Shown here piece by piece: positions 100 through 38,278 of a DNA stretch of 38,278 nt (position 1 is the first letter of the stretch; each line of letters begins with the position of its first letter). The position numbers were made by a program, and so were the translations under genes. The stretch covers positions 1 through 38,278 of the IMG/VR virus record IMGVR_UViG_3300020195_000080; one strand, given 5' to 3'. Origin of the DNA: a virus. Below the pieces are notes generated by a model. The model ran no database searches. It had not been told where the DNA came from and saw nothing but the letters and a program-made list of their open reading frames with translations.

Positions 100-240
100 C
101 TATTGGCCAAAGTCCATCACGCGCCCCGAAGCGACGTCCATTTCTTTTCCCGCCTGGTTCTTTAACTTCCGCGCAAGACCACGTTGGGATAACCCAAGCC
201 GCAACATCTGCTCCTTAAACCAGTCACTATCCACAGCCAT
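100..240 (-). CDS. short helix-turn-helix protein, possible truncated repressor
   Basis: This reading frame of 46 residues is on the minus strand. It begins MAVDSDWFKEQMLRLGLSQR and continues GLARKLKN, which fits the first two helices of a Cro/CI-type helix-turn-helix (WF..Q...LGLSQRGLAR.L). The usual recognition helix and dimerisation part are not clear, and the protein ends with ASGRVMDFGQ, so it may be a truncated repressor or a natural mini-regulator. There is no good ribosome binding site before the ATG. It diverges from the regulator gene at 353, and three operator-like palindromes lie between them, which supports a regulatory role. The function as repressor is inference. Confidence 0.5.
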   Translation of the reverse strand: MAVDSDWFKEQMLRLGLSQRGLARKLKNQAGKEMDVASGRVMDFGQ

Positions 241-253
241 AATGTGGATAAGT

Positions 254-270
254 GTTGCGTATATCCCAAC
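254..270. promoter_or_regulatory. operator-like palindrome, left switch, site 1
   Basis: GTTGCGTATATCCCAAC is an imperfect 6-5-6 inverted repeat lying 13 bp before the minus-strand start at 240. Read on the minus strand it begins with GTTGGGATA, a string found in only a few other places in the window (183-191, 3221-3229, 3251-3259, 38153-38161). It shares the GTTG-N9-CAAC layout with the sites at 302, 322, 3288, 28520 and 32282. Confidence 0.55.
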
Positions 271-301
271 GCCTTACAAGCAAAGCAGTCCTTGACGAAG
301 C

Positions 302-318
302 GTTGAGATAAACTCAAC
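302..318. promoter_or_regulatory. operator-like palindrome, left switch, site 2
   Basis: GTTGAGATAAACTCAAC has perfect 6-base arms around a 5-base spacer. Its centre is 20 bp from the centre of the next palindrome (322-338), close to two helical turns, so proteins bound at both would sit on the same face of the DNA. It overlaps the candidate -35 region of the rightward gene at 353. Confidence 0.7.
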
Positions 319-330
319 ATTGTTGGTAAT
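303..330 (+). promoter_or_regulatory. candidate rightward promoter of the left switch
   Basis: TTGAGA (303-308) and GGTAAT (325-330) are separated by 16 bp and lie inside the two palindromes, so a bound repressor would cover both boxes. An alternative is TTGACG (292-297) with CAACAT (315-320) at 17 bp. Neither is close to consensus. The choice is inference from position. Confidence 0.3.
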
Positions 331-338
331 TAACCAAC
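322..338. promoter_or_regulatory. operator-like palindrome, left switch, site 3
   Basis: GTTGGTAATTAACCAAC has the same 6-5-6 geometry and GTTG/CAAC ends as the neighbouring site. It overlaps the candidate -10 region and lies 14 bp before the start codon at 353. The pairing with site 2 is what one expects of a divergent phage switch region. Confidence 0.65.
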
Positions 339-352
339 ATCCAAAGGCTTGA

Positions 353-586
353 ATGAAGTTCATGCGCCCTGCCGACTACGTCATACACGCATTTAAAGGT
401 GTAAGAGCCACAGCCAGAGCCATTGGCAGACACCCGTCGTCTGTGTCCAGATGGCAGGTTCCAAAAAATCGCAAAGGAACAGACGGGATGATCCCGCATC
501 GTGCCCAGCATTTAGTCTTAGAAGCGGCGCAGAATCTAGAACTCGATATCACCCCAACAGATCTAATCATTGGACGCCATCTGTGA
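353..586 (+). CDS. Cro/YdaS-type helix-turn-helix regulator
   Basis: This 77-residue protein has a helix-turn-helix at about residues 17-34 (VRATARAIGRHPSSVSRWQ), followed by MIPHRAQHLVLEAAQ and DITPTDLI. That order (HTH, basic loop, iP.e.a..i..a, then a short tail) is typical of YdaS/Cro-like phage regulators. An AAAGG ribosome binding site at about 341-346 supports the start at 353; an in-frame ATG at 362 is possible. The gene lies to the right of three operator-like palindromes and its stop overlaps the GTG of the terminase small-subunit gene, so it could lead the packaging transcript. Which operator it binds cannot be told from sequence. Confidence 0.75.
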   Translation: MKFMRPADYVIHAFKGVRATARAIGRHPSSVSRWQVPKNRKGTDGMIPHRAQHLVLEAAQNLELDITPTDLIIGRHL

Positions 587-3220: not shown

Positions 3221-3263
3221 TATCCCAACACCTCGAAAGTCTAATCAAACTATCCCAACACCT
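3221..3263. repeat. two direct copies of TATCCCAACACCT
   Basis: The 13-base string occurs at 3221-3233 and 3251-3263, exactly 30 bp apart. Its complement starts with GTTGGGATA, the half-site also seen at 183-191 and 262-270. With the palindrome at 3288-3304 this makes a cluster of operator-like elements in the gap before the acetyltransferase gene. Confidence 0.6.
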
Positions 3264-3287: not shown

Positions 3288-3304
3288 GTTGAGTTAATCT
3301 CAAC
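3288..3304. promoter_or_regulatory. operator-like palindrome before the acetyltransferase gene
   Basis: GTTGAGTTAATCTCAAC has perfect 6-base arms and a 5-base spacer, matching the sites at 302 and 28520. It ends 12 bp before the ATG at 3317. No good promoter boxes are visible beside it, so it could act on an unrecognised promoter, as a roadblock to elongating polymerase, or in DNA organisation. Confidence 0.65.
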
Positions 3305-28519: not shown

Positions 28520-28536
28520 GTTGAGATTAACTCAAC
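28520..28536. promoter_or_regulatory. operator-like palindrome before the tail-fibre gene
   Basis: GTTGAGATTAACTCAAC has perfect 6-base arms with a 5-base spacer, the same class as 302-318 and 3288-3304. It lies in the 82-base gap between the giant gene and the fibre gene, 29 bp before the ATG. No consensus promoter is evident nearby. Confidence 0.65.
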
Positions 28537-28565: not shown

Positions 28566-30518
28566 ATGTCTCTATCATCAACAACCAGTCGTAATGACTA
28601 CGTTGGAAACAACACAACAGCCACTTACGCTTACGGGTTTAAGATCTTTCTCAACACCGAGCTCCTTGTCACTAAAGATGTGGCCGGAGTCTTAACTACC
28701 TTAGCACTAACCACCGACTACACGGTAACGGGTGTTGGTGAAACCGCTGGTGGAAACGTTGTTCTTGTTGCTGGAAACCTAGCGACCGGCTCGCTTCTCA
28801 CGATCAGACGTAAGCGGGCGATTAAGCAGCTCACAGACATTCGAAATGGTGGGGAGTATTACCGCTCAAACCAAGAAGATGATCTCGATAAAGTCATCAT
28901 GATCGATCTTCAGCAGCAAGACGAGATTGACCGCTCGATGAAGTTACCTGAGACCGTTGCGGCTTCTGGGTTTGATACTGCTCTGCCTGCTGATATTGCA
29001 GACAACCCAGGCGCATCATTCATTGTTAATGCTGCTGGCGATGGGCTTATCTTGGGACCTACAGCTGATGAGATTTCGGGAGCTGCGGCAAGTGCAACAG
29101 CGGCGGCGGGTTCAGCAACAGCCGCTGGTGTGTCTGCAACCGCGGCATCTGGCTCAGCAACGGCGGCGGGAACGAGCGCATCAAATGCGGCTGCTGCATT
29201 AGCGTCTGCATTCTTTCGCGATGTGGTTTACCTAACATCTGCGAGCAGTCCCTACACCGTGGCCCAAGCTGATAACGGAAAGCTGTTTGACATCAACTCG
29301 TCTGCTGGCGCTATCGCGATAACTCTTCCAGGGATCTCAGGCCTCTCACTCCCGTTTAACGTGGCGTTTAAACTTACAACCGCTGGCAACAACGTAACGA
29401 TCAGCCGAAGTGTAACTGACACGATCAACGGTGCAACGTCACTTGTATTAAGCGCCGCAGGAACCGGAGCACAGCTTGCCGCCGACACAGATGGATCTCC
29501 TGACAACTGGTCGGGACTTGATTTCGGAACACTTTCCAATGCCTCGGTTACGCAACTGACACTTGATAACACAACCACATCGTCATCATCGGCACCGCTG
29601 AACCTTTCGCTTGCGTGCTCGGTTGCATCAAACGCCCTTACCATCAACCTTAACGACGCTGCTGGATCAGGCGCCTCTGCCGCAGCTCCAGTGCGCATTC
29701 CATTTAGAAGTGCCACTGCCGCGACAGGCACCTACAGCATGGTCAGCATTACTGGTGCGCTGTCGGTTGTTGTTAGCTCGGGCTCAACGCTCGGCCACCG
29801 AAACGGTATCTCGCAATATATCTATGTCTATGCAATTAACAATGCCGGAACGGTAGAGCTTGCGGTCTCGTCTCGACTATACGATGACGGGTCAATCTTA
29901 TCGACTGTTGCCGAAGGCGGGGCGGGTGCTGCGGACGCGCCTGAAAGCATCTATTCGACAACTCTACGGGCTGGAGTAGCGGCCAGGCTCATCGGTCGCC
30001 TAACTGTGAATCAGACGACTGCGGGAACATGGGCTGCCTTACCTTCTGAAATTTCGCTATGGCCATTTCAAAAAGTGGGGGCCAACTCTGGATACGTTCG
30101 CCTTTATACTGGCAACGGCTTCGGCTCGACCAACACGAAGATCCGAAAATTCAGCACTGTGTCCATCTATTCCGGCGCCGAAATCACTTACGCTAACACC
30201 GCAGCGGATGGCGCCTCGTTTACGCTTAATACTCCTGGAGTTTATGCGATCAGCTATTCAGACGAGGGCACCTCGGGGGCGCCAGGGATTGGTATCACGC
30301 TGAATTCGGCAAACCTCACGACCGACGTGAATTTGGTGTCAGACGAGGAGCTCTTAATCATAACGAGCGTAGGAACAGGAAACGAGCGATCCGTGTGCTC
30401 GTACACGGGCCGGTTCTCAGCCGGCGATGTTATCCGTGCGCATACGAACACAGGCACGGCAGGATTTCAGAGCGCAGCGGCGGGCGCTCGTTTCGCAATA
30501 GTAAAAGTAAGTGAGTAA
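28566..30518 (+). CDS. tail fibre or spike protein
   Basis: This protein of 650 residues is the likely host-recognition protein. The N-terminal 130 residues (SRNDYVGNNTTATYAYGFKI, TTDYTVTGVGE, YYRSNQEDDLDKVIMIDLQQ) match the virion-attachment domain of T7 gp17-type fibres. An alanine/serine/threonine-rich linker follows (about 170-220, repeats of GSATAAG). The middle is beta-rich with a possible lectin or beta-helix part. The last about 120 residues (TVSIYSGAEITYANTAADGA to FAIVKVSE) have a C1q/TNF-like jelly-roll pattern. GGGGG precedes the ATG. Receptor specificity cannot be read from sequence. Confidence 0.85.
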   Translation: MSLSSTTSRNDYVGNNTTATYAYGFKIFLNTELLVTKDVAGVLTTLALTTDYTVTGVGETAGGNVVLVAGNLATGSLLTIRRKRAIKQLTDIRNGGEYYRSNQEDDLDKVIMIDLQQQDEIDRSMKLPETVAASGFDTALPADIADNPGASFIVNAAGDGLILGPTADEISGAAASATAAAGSATAAGVSATAASGSATAAGTSASNAAAALASAFFRDVVYLTSASSPYTVAQADNGKLFDINSSAGAIAITLPGISGLSLPFNVAFKLTTAGNNVTISRSVTDTINGATSLVLSAAGTGAQLAADTDGSPDNWSGLDFGTLSNASVTQLTLDNTTTSSSSAPLNLSLACSVASNALTINLNDAAGSGASAAAPVRIPFRSATAATGTYSMVSITGALSVVVSSGSTLGHRNGISQYIYVYAINNAGTVELAVSSRLYDDGSILSTVAEGGAGAADAPESIYSTTLRAGVAARLIGRLTVNQTTAGTWAALPSEISLWPFQKVGANSGYVRLYTGNGFGSTNTKIRKFSTVSIYSGAEITYANTAADGASFTLNTPGVYAISYSDEGTSGAPGIGITLNSANLTTDVNLVSDEELLIITSVGTGNERSVCSYTGRFSAGDVIRAHTNTGTAGFQSAAAGARFAIVKVSE

Positions 30519-31826: not shown

Positions 31827-32058
31827 GCAGCTTCGAAATCAAATTGAAGCGATTGGTGATCTGTATGATCTGGTTGATAAGCTAGATCAAAAAATCTTAC
31901 TTCAACTTCTTGATGACCGTGATCAGTTAAGGGCTGCAATGTCCAGGGCCGCAAGCAAACGAAGGCCCGATCACCCAATAGCTATTATACTTCGGACCGC
32001 AATAGACGAGAGCGACAGGCTTTGGACTAATGAATTTTCGGCGGGTTCATCATTGTAG
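31816..32058 (+). CDS. small helical protein with chorismate-mutase-like pattern
   Basis: The ATG at 31816 (alternatives at 31807 and 31792) gives 80 residues. The stretch YDLVDKLDQKILLQLLDDRDQLRAAM resembles the first helix of AroQ-type chorismate mutases (L...I..LD..LL.LL..R..L). The second catalytic arginine (R in DDRDQL) is present, but the first arginine and the lysine expected later are not at matching positions. It may therefore be only a similar helical dimer without activity. It overlaps the previous gene and converges with a minus-strand frame at its 3' end. Confidence 0.5.
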   Translation: MTIEQLRNQIEAIGDLYDLVDKLDQKILLQLLDDRDQLRAAMSRAASKRRPDHPIAIILRTAIDESDRLWTNEFSAGSSL

Positions 32059-32281
32059 CGAAATCATCGCCGCGATCTTCTGCTTCCCAGATCTTTGCGA
32101 CCTGCCGCCACTCATACTCGGTTGCTTCTTGAAAGCGCATCTTGGCACATGGAGGGGGGATCTTCTTCACCATATAGCGCGGGAAGAATTGAGCTACTCG
32201 CGGGTCACATCCGTTATCAACCTGCACCTTGGCTGAACCAACTGCACCTACATCCGGCCAATAACAGCCTCGTATCTTCAT
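32027..32281 (-). CDS. minus-strand small protein of unknown function
   Basis: This 84-residue frame starts MKIRGCYWPDVGAVG and contains FPRYMVKKIPPPCAKMRF and EYEWRQVAKIWEAEDRG. I do not recognise a family. A minus-strand promoter candidate (TTGACC, 17 bp, GACAAT) ends only 6 bases before its ATG and is overlapped by an operator-like palindrome, so the gene could be made without a leader and be repressor-controlled. It is the only minus-strand frame in this area with such signals. It overlaps the 3' end of the plus-strand gene at 31816-32058. Confidence 0.5.
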   Translation of the reverse strand: MKIRGCYWPDVGAVGSAKVQVDNGCDPRVAQFFPRYMVKKIPPPCAKMRFQEATEYEWRQVAKIWEAEDRGDDFATMMNPPKIH

Positions 32282-32298
32282 GTTGAGATTGTCACAAC
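32282..32298. promoter_or_regulatory. operator-like palindrome over the minus-strand promoter
   Basis: GTTGAGATTGTCACAAC keeps the GTTG-N9-CAAC frame of the other sites and sits inside the longer inverted repeat CATGTTG/CAACATG. It covers the -10 box of the minus-strand promoter at 32288-32293. The left half (GTTGAGATT) matches site 28520 exactly; the right half is degenerate. Confidence 0.55.
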
Positions 32299-32316
32299 AT
32301 GACAGATTCAGGTCAA
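32288..32316 (-). promoter_or_regulatory. candidate minus-strand promoter
   Basis: On the minus strand, TTGACC (32316-32311) and GACAAT (32293-32288) are separated by exactly 17 bp. The start codon at 32281 lies 6 bases after the -10 box, which would give a leaderless or nearly leaderless transcript. Confidence 0.45.
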
Positions 32317-32524
32317 CTCACCAGTATGTCGTACAGTCGTGGAAACAGGACGCTCGCCAGGGACTTAAGCGTGCCAAACCGGGGTTCGGACTTTCCAGTT
32401 TCTAGTCCTGGTATGTTCTAAGTGGAACCTTTGCCGCGCGCGCGACTTCGTCTTGGGTAAATCCCAATTTCTCGCGCCGCGCACGAATAATATTGCTGAC
32501 AGAATCTGGCGTCTTTCCCAACAC
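32313..32524 (-). pseudogene. frameshifted XRE-family repressor gene
   Basis: From GTG 32524 the minus strand reads SNIIRARREKLGFTQDEVAR and AAKVPLRTYQD, a clear XRE helix-turn-helix, and then meets TAG at 32404-32402 after 40 codons. One base back, the next frame continues LETGKSEPRFGTLKSLASVL and FPRLYDILVS to a TGA at 32315-32313. Together these make a complete XRE-type domain of about 70 residues (R.Y..LE.GKS.P....L..LA..L). The total is 212 bases, one short of a whole number of codons. No classical slippery heptamer is seen, so a one-base deletion or a sequencing error is more likely than programmed shifting. It faces the regulator at 32607. Confidence 0.8.
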
Positions 32525-32567: not shown

Positions 32568-32584
32568 CCGTTGACAGCCAACGG
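32568..32584. promoter_or_regulatory. perfect palindrome over the -35 box, right switch
   Basis: CCGTTGACAGCCAACGG has 6-base perfect arms and a 5-base spacer. It contains the TTGACA -35 box of the promoter at 32571-32599. Its register differs from the GTTGRG-class sites, so a different protein probably binds it. Confidence 0.65.
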
Positions 32585-32599
32585 GAAGCCGTGTCTAAT
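32571..32599 (+). promoter_or_regulatory. near-consensus sigma-70 promoter, early rightward
   Basis: TTGACA (32571-32576) and TCTAAT (32594-32599) are separated by 17 bp; only one base differs from consensus. The expected transcription start is within a base or two of the ATG at 32607, so the first message would be leaderless. It probably drives the early genes to the right. Confidence 0.8.
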
Positions 32600-32605
32600 A
32601 GACAC
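32591..32605. promoter_or_regulatory. perfect palindrome over the -10 box, right switch
   Basis: GTGTCTAATAGACAC is a perfect inverted repeat with 7-base arms and one central base. It covers the -10 box and ends just before the start codon. With the palindrome at 32568 it could allow two-site repression of the early promoter. Confidence 0.65.
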
Positions 32606-35385: not shown

Positions 35386-36501
35386 ATGGCTCAGTCCTTC
35401 GTTCCGTATGTGCATTCCGATGGTAAGACCTGGGAGTTCTACTTTGTGGACCCATCGTCGTCGGTCATCTATTTTATCAAGAGTCACAATGGGAAAAAGA
35501 TTAAGTTCACGACCAAAGAGAAAACACCGGACGGTGTTAAGGCCAAGCGTTACGCGAACGAAGAGTTTGATCGGCGCATCGGACGAAAGCAGCGCCACGT
35601 TCGCACGCTTGTTCAGGACGAAATCAAAGCCTGGCTCCTTTTAAAAGAGAGCGAGGGCCATAAGTACGACACGATGAACAACATCAGGCGCGCGGCAAAA
35701 CAGATCGAAGAGTTTTGGGGTAAGCAGTTCCCGAACGAGATCACTAGAGATTCGTTTGCGGAATGGTGTGCGTGGTGGAGAGTCAATCACCCGGACATTC
35801 AAATGGAAAACGCAATCAAATATTTCAATAACTTTTGCGCCTACCTGCACGAGAAGTTAGACGGCGACCGGCCGCTACTTCCGTCAAAGCTTAGGTTCAA
35901 AGATCCCAACCGCTTCGTGAATGAAGCCAAGCGCGATCTTAAAAAGGAACGGGTCTTTACATACGAAGAGTTCGTTCGCATCCATTCAACAGCCGTAAAT
36001 GACGTCGAGGCACTGCTCGTTCACTTCCTTTACACGATGGGTTCACGGGTCGATGAGACCTTAAAGCTCGACTTCAATCGTATCCTTTTGGACCGCGAGG
36101 TGCCGGCGTACCGTTGGTCATCGGGCACCAATAAGGCCAAGAAGGTTGGAGAAAACGCCATTCATTTGTCGCTGATTGAGCCGTTTCGAAAGCTCCGCGA
36201 ACGCCGAAAAGCGGAAGGAACAACGCTCTATTTCCCGCAACAAATGGACAATCAGAAGTCCCTTCGCGAGCAACAAGTTGATTGGTCGGATTGGCGTGTT
36301 CGGGCTGATCTTGGATGGCACTGGACCAGCCACACTTTTAAGCACACCTGTCTCACGAATCTATTTAATGACCCGAAGAATCCTCAGGCCGTGATCTGTA
36401 AGCTCTACCGAACGTCGCTTCAGACTGCCTTAAAACATTACGTGAAGGTGACCCAGGAGTCGGTGTTAGCGATGCGGGAATCGATCGAGGTTAAGCTATG
36501 A
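35386..36501 (+). CDS. int: tyrosine integrase with substitutions at two catalytic positions
   Basis: This 371-residue recombinase has an N-terminal arm-binding part, a core-binding domain (EIKAWLLLKESEGHKY to PFVNE-like region) and a catalytic domain from about residue 185. Box I arginine is R221 (MGSRVDETLKL). Box II should read HxxR but reads HTFKHT (H316, K319). The later H/W position is R342 (KLYRTSLQTALKHY), and the nucleophile is Y352. A lysine candidate lies near 250-253. It follows the excisionase-like gene and is followed by a probable attP. K319 and R342 are unusual, so activity should not be taken for granted. Confidence 0.9.
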   Translation: MAQSFVPYVHSDGKTWEFYFVDPSSSVIYFIKSHNGKKIKFTTKEKTPDGVKAKRYANEEFDRRIGRKQRHVRTLVQDEIKAWLLLKESEGHKYDTMNNIRRAAKQIEEFWGKQFPNEITRDSFAEWCAWWRVNHPDIQMENAIKYFNNFCAYLHEKLDGDRPLLPSKLRFKDPNRFVNEAKRDLKKERVFTYEEFVRIHSTAVNDVEALLVHFLYTMGSRVDETLKLDFNRILLDREVPAYRWSSGTNKAKKVGENAIHLSLIEPFRKLRERRKAEGTTLYFPQQMDNQKSLREQQVDWSDWRVRADLGWHWTSHTFKHTCLTNLFNDPKNPQAVICKLYRTSLQTALKHYVKVTQESVLAMRESIEVKL

Positions 36502-37738: not shown

Positions 37739-38259
37739 CGAGAGAAGACTTCGCACTCGCCATGAACCGGCTCAAATCGGTTTACGGCGAACGTTTTTAT
37801 CCGACCGAGCGCATCGCCATGATGTTCGAGCAGCTCCAACATACACCACTTCTTATTCTTGAAAAGGCGGTGAGCCGCGTTATTTGCGAACAGATGAATC
37901 CGCCAACTCTTTCTAAAATCAAGGAGTCGATGGTGCTCGTCCGCAACGAGTATCAAATTGAAGACCCGAACGACTCGGTTCGCTCAACCCTTGCGCTCGG
38001 GAAATATAACGATTGCCCACACTGTTACGGCATGGGGCTCATGAACATCCGCAAGAAGTCCGAGTTTCTTCGCTACTCCTACGTGCGGACCTGTTCCTGT
38101 TCGGCTGGCGCCGAGGCTGCAAAGCTTCCAGAAAACAAAAACAAACTTCTGCGTTGGGATAGCAATCCTGATCTCGTGTCTCACCACCAGCGCGACTACG
38201 ACCTATCCGTTCCCGAGGCGATGGTTAAGTTTAAAAAACCAGACGAGGTTCATCGATGA
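37735..38259 (+). CDS. zinc-ribbon protein, helicase-loader candidate
   Basis: A GTG start overlapping the previous stop gives 174 residues. The N-terminal part (EDFALAMNRLKSVYGERF, MMFEQLQHTPLLILEKAVSR) is helical; a central segment (RNEYQIEDP) is followed by a zinc-binding motif CPHC (94-97) and CSC (120-122). This layout resembles phage replication P-like proteins that follow an O-like initiator and deliver the host helicase. No Walker motif is visible, so it is not a DnaC-type ATPase. Assignment rests on layout and position. Confidence 0.6.
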   Translation: MTREDFALAMNRLKSVYGERFYPTERIAMMFEQLQHTPLLILEKAVSRVICEQMNPPTLSKIKESMVLVRNEYQIEDPNDSVRSTLALGKYNDCPHCYGMGLMNIRKKSEFLRYSYVRTCSCSAGAEAAKLPENKNKLLRWDSNPDLVSHHQRDYDLSVPEAMVKFKKPDEVHR

Positions 38260-38278
38260 GCCCAACCATCCTCGACCG
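38256..38278 (+). CDS. start of a gene cut by the window edge
   Basis: The ATG overlaps the previous stop (ATGA) and only MSPTILD plus part of the next codons are visible. By position the gene belongs to the replication operon. Nothing more can be said from these bases. Confidence 0.5.

What the first reader, a model, noticed from the sequence alone, without database searches (positions are those of the whole stretch)
254..338. Founding cluster of a dispersed operator (stoperator-like) network
Three 17-bp GTTG-N9-CAAC palindromes lie between two divergent regulator genes, and further copies occur at 3288, 28520 and 32282 outside coding sequence. The best copies have perfect 6-5-6 arms (GTTGAG...CTCAAC). 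A shared asymmetric half-site GTTGGGATA also recurs (183, 262, 3221, 3251, and one coding copy at 38153), against about 0.3 copies of any 9-mer expected on both strands of this window. Sites inside late-gene gaps resemble stoperators of mycobacteriophage L5, where repressor silences transcription at a distance. Here the binding protein and effect are inference.
Basis: partly seen in the sequence, partly recalled or inferred. Interest (0 to 1): 0.72.

Follow-up and report, generated by a model that had tools for sequence, protein, structure and literature searches.

The report
Scattered binding sites for phage Cro
A virus of bacteria carries about six copies of a 17-letter mirror-image DNA signal, three beside the gene for a small repressor (Cro) and three at other gene junctions; the same signal sits in front of the matching repressor gene in related viruses, so it is very probably where that repressor sits to hold genes off.

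Summary
The sites are real. GTTG-N9-CAAC occurs 8 times against 0.56 expected (0 of 100 shuffles) and is the most over-represented 4-base dyad of the window. A search that assumed no word picked this palindrome as the best noncoding-enriched word. The binding protein can now be named with fair confidence. The 77-aa product of 353-586 is a Cro homologue, with a Cro-like predicted fold. Upstream of 29 non-redundant related cro genes, GTTG-N9-CAAC is the commonest dyad: 12/29 exact and 29/29 with at most one mismatch, against 5 of 29 in random stretches. A matrix built only from those phages ranks window sites 3288, 28520, 302 and 32282 first to fourth. The dispersed-operator part of the finding is therefore supported. 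The stoperator (roadblock) part is not: the sites are few and palindromic, not numerous, asymmetric and oriented as in L5, and in relatives the extra site overlaps a clear promoter. The second 'regulator' (100-240) is a 46-aa ORF with no family match. Verdict: a dispersed Cro-operator regulon, ordinary in kind but unusual in reaching late-gene gaps and the terminase operon.

The parts
353..586 (+). cro-like gene (77 aa), proposed source of the binding protein; overlaps the terminase small subunit start at 583
   Evidence: tblastn to phage Cro proteins, 40% identity, E 2e-9; NCBIfam carph-isopro domain E 1e-6, below its curated cut-off; AlphaFold pLDDT 91.6; nearest PDB folds Xfaso1, N15 and P22 Cro
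254..270 (.). operator GTTGCGTATATCCCAAC
   Evidence: score 12.0
302..318 (.). operator GTTGAGATAAACTCAAC, perfect 6-5-6; overlaps candidate weak promoters TTGACG-N17-CAACAT and TTGAGA-N16-GGTAAT
   Evidence: (score 19.3)
322..338 (.). operator GTTGGTAATTAACCAAC, 20 bp from the 302 site
   Evidence: score 10.2
183..199 (.). degenerate site or half-site GTTGGGATAACCCAAGC, inside ORF 100-240
3221..3233 (+). half-site TATCCCAACACCT
3251..3263 (+). half-site TATCCCAACACCT, 30 bp from the previous one
3288..3304 (.). operator GTTGAGTTAATCTCAAC, perfect 6-5-6, in the gap between TerL and the acetyltransferase/portal genes
   Evidence: top hit, score 19.8
28520..28536 (.). operator GTTGAGATTAACTCAAC, perfect 6-5-6, in the gap before the tail-fibre gene 28566-30518; the reverse complement of the 3288 site
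   Evidence: score 19.6
32282..32298 (.). operator GTTGAGATTGTCACAAC directly upstream of the start of minus-strand ORF 32027-32281; overlaps a minus-strand promoter-like sequence TTGACC-N17-GACAAT
   Evidence: (score 16.1)
100..240 (-). 46-aa ORF that reads like the start of an XRE repressor; possibly a truncated remnant, doubtful as a functional regulator
   Evidence: no family match; no phage match

Best explanation
The GTTGAG-N5-CTCAAC palindromes are operators for a dimer of the Cro-like repressor encoded at 353-586. Three lie upstream of its own gene, at a promoter that would also serve the terminase small-subunit gene that overlaps cro by four bases. Further operators stand at the junction before the acetyltransferase/portal genes, before the tail-fibre gene and before a gene of the 32-kb switch region, so one repressor could hold down several transcription units together. 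Shown: the sites, their enrichment, their noncoding placement, and the match to Cro-family operators elsewhere. Inferred: binding by this protein, dimeric binding, repression of initiation as the main effect, and any silencing in a lysogen.
For: Enrichment and placement in the window. Cro homology and predicted fold. GTTG-N9-CAAC is the top dyad upstream of 29 non-redundant cro homologues, 29/29 with at most one mismatch against a mean of 5.2 and a maximum of 10 in 100 random draws. A matrix from those sites alone ranks 3288, 28520, 302 and 32282 first to fourth in the window, with 7 of 13 hits above 10 bits noncoding against 3.4% expected, p = 8e-8. Relatives carry a further operator 0.7-1.4 kb from cro in the divergent operon, overlapping TTGACA/TATAAT-like promoters in several of them. 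The residues where the recognition helix is expected are alike (HPSSVSRW here, DPAAVSRW in relatives).
Against: No binding or expression data. The closest Cro homologues are only about 40-47% identical, and phages sharing the window's terminase do not share the word. Clear promoters are not found at 3288 or 28520. Homologues at 32-38% identity in other phages and in genomes do not show the GTTG word at cro. A divergent gene product could in principle be the binder. A Cro can be very choosy: PY54 and phiKO2 Cro bind a single operator (PMC4488713, PMC4997575).
Confidence: 0.78

Rival explanations
1. Stoperators in the L5 sense: bound repressor blocks elongating polymerase at 3288 and 28520.
For: 3288 and 28520 lie in short gaps of the late operon without a convincing sigma-70 promoter.
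Against: About six palindromic sites, not more than twenty asymmetric oriented 13-mers (PMC9283540). The extra sites in relatives overlap promoter-like hexamers, and 32282 overlaps a promoter-like sequence.
Confidence: 0.2
2. The binder is a CI-type prophage repressor (the remnant at 100-240, or the XRE gene at 32.3-32.5 kb) that shares operators with Cro.
For: The window has an integrase, so a prophage repressor is expected; CI and Cro share operators in lambda (established knowledge).
Against: 100-240 has 46 codons and no family match. The XRE frame stops after about 40 codons, with the rest of its HTH in another frame. The XRE/cro2 junction holds different palindromes. Three relatives (DC33, ctEw122, Carin1) have no annotated repressor beside cro and still carry the operators.
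Confidence: 0.2
3. The sites are activator boxes of late promoters, as for P2 Ogr.
For: Three of the four locations stand at starts of late transcription units.
Against: The closest match of the neighbouring gene is a Cro, and in relatives the operators overlap promoter hexamers or lie right at the cro start, as repressor sites do.
Confidence: 0.1
4. Chance, or RNA hairpins/terminators.
For: One site (302) is scored as terminator-like.
Against: Enrichment tests, recovery by an independent matrix, and no T-run at the other sites.
Confidence: 0.02

Closest known systems
Cro operators of DC33/ctQRb9/ctEw122-like podophages (found here; I saw no mention of them in the passages read of the Limnohabitans phage paper, PMC12195039)
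   Same: Same word and geometry (GTTG-N9-CAAC, 17 bp) upstream of a homologous cro; an additional operator away from cro; shared genome features such as a giant late gene and an acetyltransferase next to the terminase
   Different: Relatives mostly have GTTGAT arms and cro heads an early operon; in the window the arms are GTTGAG and cro runs directly into the terminase small subunit
Lambda OR/OL and N15/phiKO2 immB operators
   Same: Small palindromic operators of a Cro/CI switch: six of 17 bp in lambda, five of 16 bp in N15/phiKO2 (PMC4997575)
   Different: Those lie in two clusters by the switch and the early or replication genes; here single sites lie about 3, 10 and 6 kb away around the circle, two of them in late-gene gaps
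Cluster A mycobacteriophage (L5) stoperators
   Same: Repressor-type sites scattered in short intergenic gaps, including late genes
   Different: L5: more than twenty asymmetric 13-mers bound by a monomer with two DNA-binding domains and oriented with transcription (PMC9283540); here about six palindromes and a single-HTH Cro
phiC31 conserved inverted repeats and phage P1 C1 operators (from memory, not tested)
   Same: Roughly 17-bp repressor sites scattered over a phage genome
   Different: More sites, and unrelated repressors as far as known

Membership tests
Phage Cro repressor and its operators | Small HTH protein related to known Cro proteins | tested here: met
   (Foldseek E-values are weak, best 0.02, probability 1.00)
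Phage Cro repressor and its operators | Palindromic operators in the region upstream of cro | tested here: met
   254, 302 and 322; 29/29 relatives with at most one mismatch
Phage Cro repressor and its operators | Divergent prophage repressor (CI) gene sharing the operators (usual, not universal) | tested here: inconclusive
   100-240 has 46 aa and no family match; three relatives also lack an annotated repressor there
Phage Cro repressor and its operators | Protein binds the sites and lowers transcription | not testable with these tools
   needs EMSA, footprint or reporter assays
L5-type stoperators | More than twenty sites across the genome | tested here: not met
   about six good sites
L5-type stoperators | Asymmetric 13-mer oriented with transcription | tested here: not met
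   17-bp palindromes; a 13-bp asymmetric repeat TATCCCAACRCCT occurs only three times
L5-type stoperators | Repressor with a second (stoperator) DNA-binding domain | tested here: not met
   77-aa protein with one HTH
L5-type stoperators | Blocks transcription elongation | not testable with these tools
   needs in vitro transcription or lysogen RNA-seq

The most novel reading that the evidence does not exclude
A one-domain Cro, rather than a prophage repressor, governs late structural genes genome-wide through scattered palindromes. It might act partly as a roadblock within the late operon, and the cro gene sits at the head of the terminase operon so that packaging genes fall under direct Cro feedback.
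Probability: 0.2. Interest if true: 0.65.

Novelty: new variant of a known kind. Interest (0 to 1): 0.45.

Why it matters
It assigns an operator word to a little-studied family of phage Cro proteins (related to NCBIfam carph-isopro), recoverable in dozens of uncultured podophages, so their regulons can be read from sequence. If the late-gap sites are used, a Cro protein would control late genes directly, which the lambda scheme leaves to an antiterminator, and a simple gel-shift would test it.

Tried and rejected
(1) The exact word in terminase relatives L001-L024: absent as a repeated feature, but L003 and L009 have other repeated palindromes upstream of the terminase genes. (2) Scans of viral and genome collections for the full 17-mer gave scattered single hits, not followed up and probably mostly chance. 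(3) A conserved late-gap operator downstream of the tail 'stabilization' gene in relatives: 17 of 31 loci scored, nominal p 7e-22, but inspection shows that in several loci the match is made of a ribosome-binding site plus an ATGTCAAC-like start, so I do not count it as evidence. It stays plausible only for the DC33-like and L314-like groups, where the site lies before the start region. My first attempt looked on the wrong side of the gene. (4) Promoters at 3288 and 28520: only weak hexamer pairs. (5) Bacterial-genome searches for closer homologues: none in 399 genomes of one order and weak ones in 5 of 385 of another class, none with the GTTG word. (6) Noncoding enrichment in full relative genomes is weaker than in the window: significant in ctEw122 and Carin1, marginal in DC33, absent in ctQRb9 and zth2-2; the latter two are affected by doubtful or missing gene annotation.

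Full report
Observation. GTTG-N9-CAAC occurs eight times against 0.56 expected, and none of 100 dinucleotide shuffles reaches eight. Because the word was chosen after reading the sequence, I repeated the test over every 4-, 5- and 6-base dyad with spacers 3-14: GTTG-N9-CAAC is the top 4-mer dyad (corrected E 5e-4) and GTTGAG-N5-CTCAAC the top 6-mer dyad (corrected E 2e-4). A further search that assumed no word, ranking every noncoding 17-mer by the noncoding share of its near matches, also put these palindromes first (p 2.6e-10; the best of 12 shifted-mask controls was 7e-6). Six of eight matches are noncoding where 3.4% is expected. The half-site GTTGGGATA occurs five times against 0.04, and three copies extend to TATCCCAACRCCT.

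Surroundings. The window reads as one tailed-phage genome: terminase small subunit 583-1122, terminase large subunit 1550-2998, acetyltransferase 3317, tail-fibre gene 28566, NlpC/P60 protein 31093, RecT-like 33850, integrase 35386-36501. An open frame runs across the joined ends, which suggests a circularly permuted genome (inference). The integrase suggests a temperate phage. A second switch-like region lies at 32.3-32.9 kb: an HTH frame on the minus strand and a small frame on the plus strand, with a strong promoter-like sequence TTGACA-N17-TCTAAT and its own perfect palindromes.

The binding protein. The 77-aa product of 353-586 matches Cro proteins of Limnohabitans phage DC33, podophages ctQRb9 and ctEw122, Paracoccus phage Pben1 and others (38-40% identity, E down to 2e-9) and the NCBIfam carph-isopro domain, below its curated cut-off. 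An AlphaFold model (pLDDT 91.6) is nearest in the PDB to Cro of Xfaso1, N15 and P22 (weak E-values, probability 1.00 for the best). The other 'regulator', 100-240, has 46 codons and no match in Pfam, PHROGs or NCBIfam.

Operators in relatives. With four of these Cro proteins as query I fetched 80 viral loci. In 29 non-redundant 300-bp cro-upstream regions GTTG-N9-CAAC is the most frequent of all 4-mer dyads (12 exact; 29 of 29 with at most one mismatch), clustering at about -22 to -34 and -110 to -155 from the start. Random stretches of the same loci give 0.85 exact and 5.2 near matches on average, maxima 4 and 10. A matrix built from those sites without the window ranks 3288, 28520, 302 and 32282 as the four best sites of the window, all noncoding. 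This is the strongest evidence: an independent source predicts the dispersed copies.

Dispersal and mode. In several relatives a further operator lies 0.7-1.4 kb from cro in the divergent operon, and in several of these its left arm supplies TTGAC(A/G) with a TATAAT-like hexamer 17-19 bases on. This is repression of initiation in form. In the window 32282 overlaps a minus-strand promoter-like sequence and 302 lies among weak hexamer pairs at the presumed cro promoter. At 3288 and 28520 no convincing promoter is seen, so a block to elongation is open there. A test for a conserved late-gap operator in relatives gave a very small nominal p, but part of that signal comes from ribosome-binding sites and start codons, so I set it aside.

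Comparison. L5 stoperators are defined by more than twenty asymmetric 13-mers, orientation with transcription and a monomeric two-domain repressor (PMC9283540); none of these is met. Lambda and N15/phiKO2 operators are sites of 16-17 bp in two clusters (PMC4997575); the window has that kind of site, but scattered. phiC31 and P1 also scatter repressor sites (from memory). So the thing works, most likely, like a Cro operator set with outlying members. It is a variant of a known kind.

Limits. No binding, expression or transcript-start data were available. The window's own closest phages by terminase do not share the word. The share of late-gene control exerted by the outlying sites is unknown.

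Noticed in passing
32315-32524, minus strand: An XRE-type HTH frame (Pfam HTH_3, profile 1-27) stops after about 40 codons, and the rest of the domain (profile 29-48, weak) continues in another frame: a broken repressor gene, an assembly error or programmed frameshifting.
   Followed up: partly
32568-32605: Strong promoter-like TTGACA-N17-TCTAAT overlapped by two perfect palindromes, CCGTTGACAGCCAACGG and GTGTCTAATAGACAC, each found perfectly only here, just before a small HTH-like frame that would be nearly leaderless.
   Followed up: partly
227-251: Inverted pair of DnaA-box-like sequences, TATCCACA-N7-TGTGGATA, beside the operator cluster.
   Followed up: no
L003 1997-2148; L009 831-1675: Terminase relatives carry other repeated palindromes (four GTGTCC...GGACAC; three TGTTCA...TGAACA) at the corresponding place upstream of the terminase genes: same layout, different word.
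   Followed up: partly
L283 1443-1459: ATTGCGATTAACGCAAT, a 17-bp 6-5-6 palindrome, lies about 58 bp upstream of the matched stretch of a distant cro homologue in a bacterial genome.
   Followed up: no
PQ492659 (L195): Limnohabitans phage DC33 is filed under Inoviridae in its record, although it is a 39-kb double-stranded DNA phage with head and short tail (PMC12195039).
   Followed up: no
window ends 38240-38278 and 1-66: An open frame (MSPTILDRLGRQETFVVFANELLKLIRGCK) runs across the joined ends, suggesting a circularly permuted complete genome.
   Followed up: no
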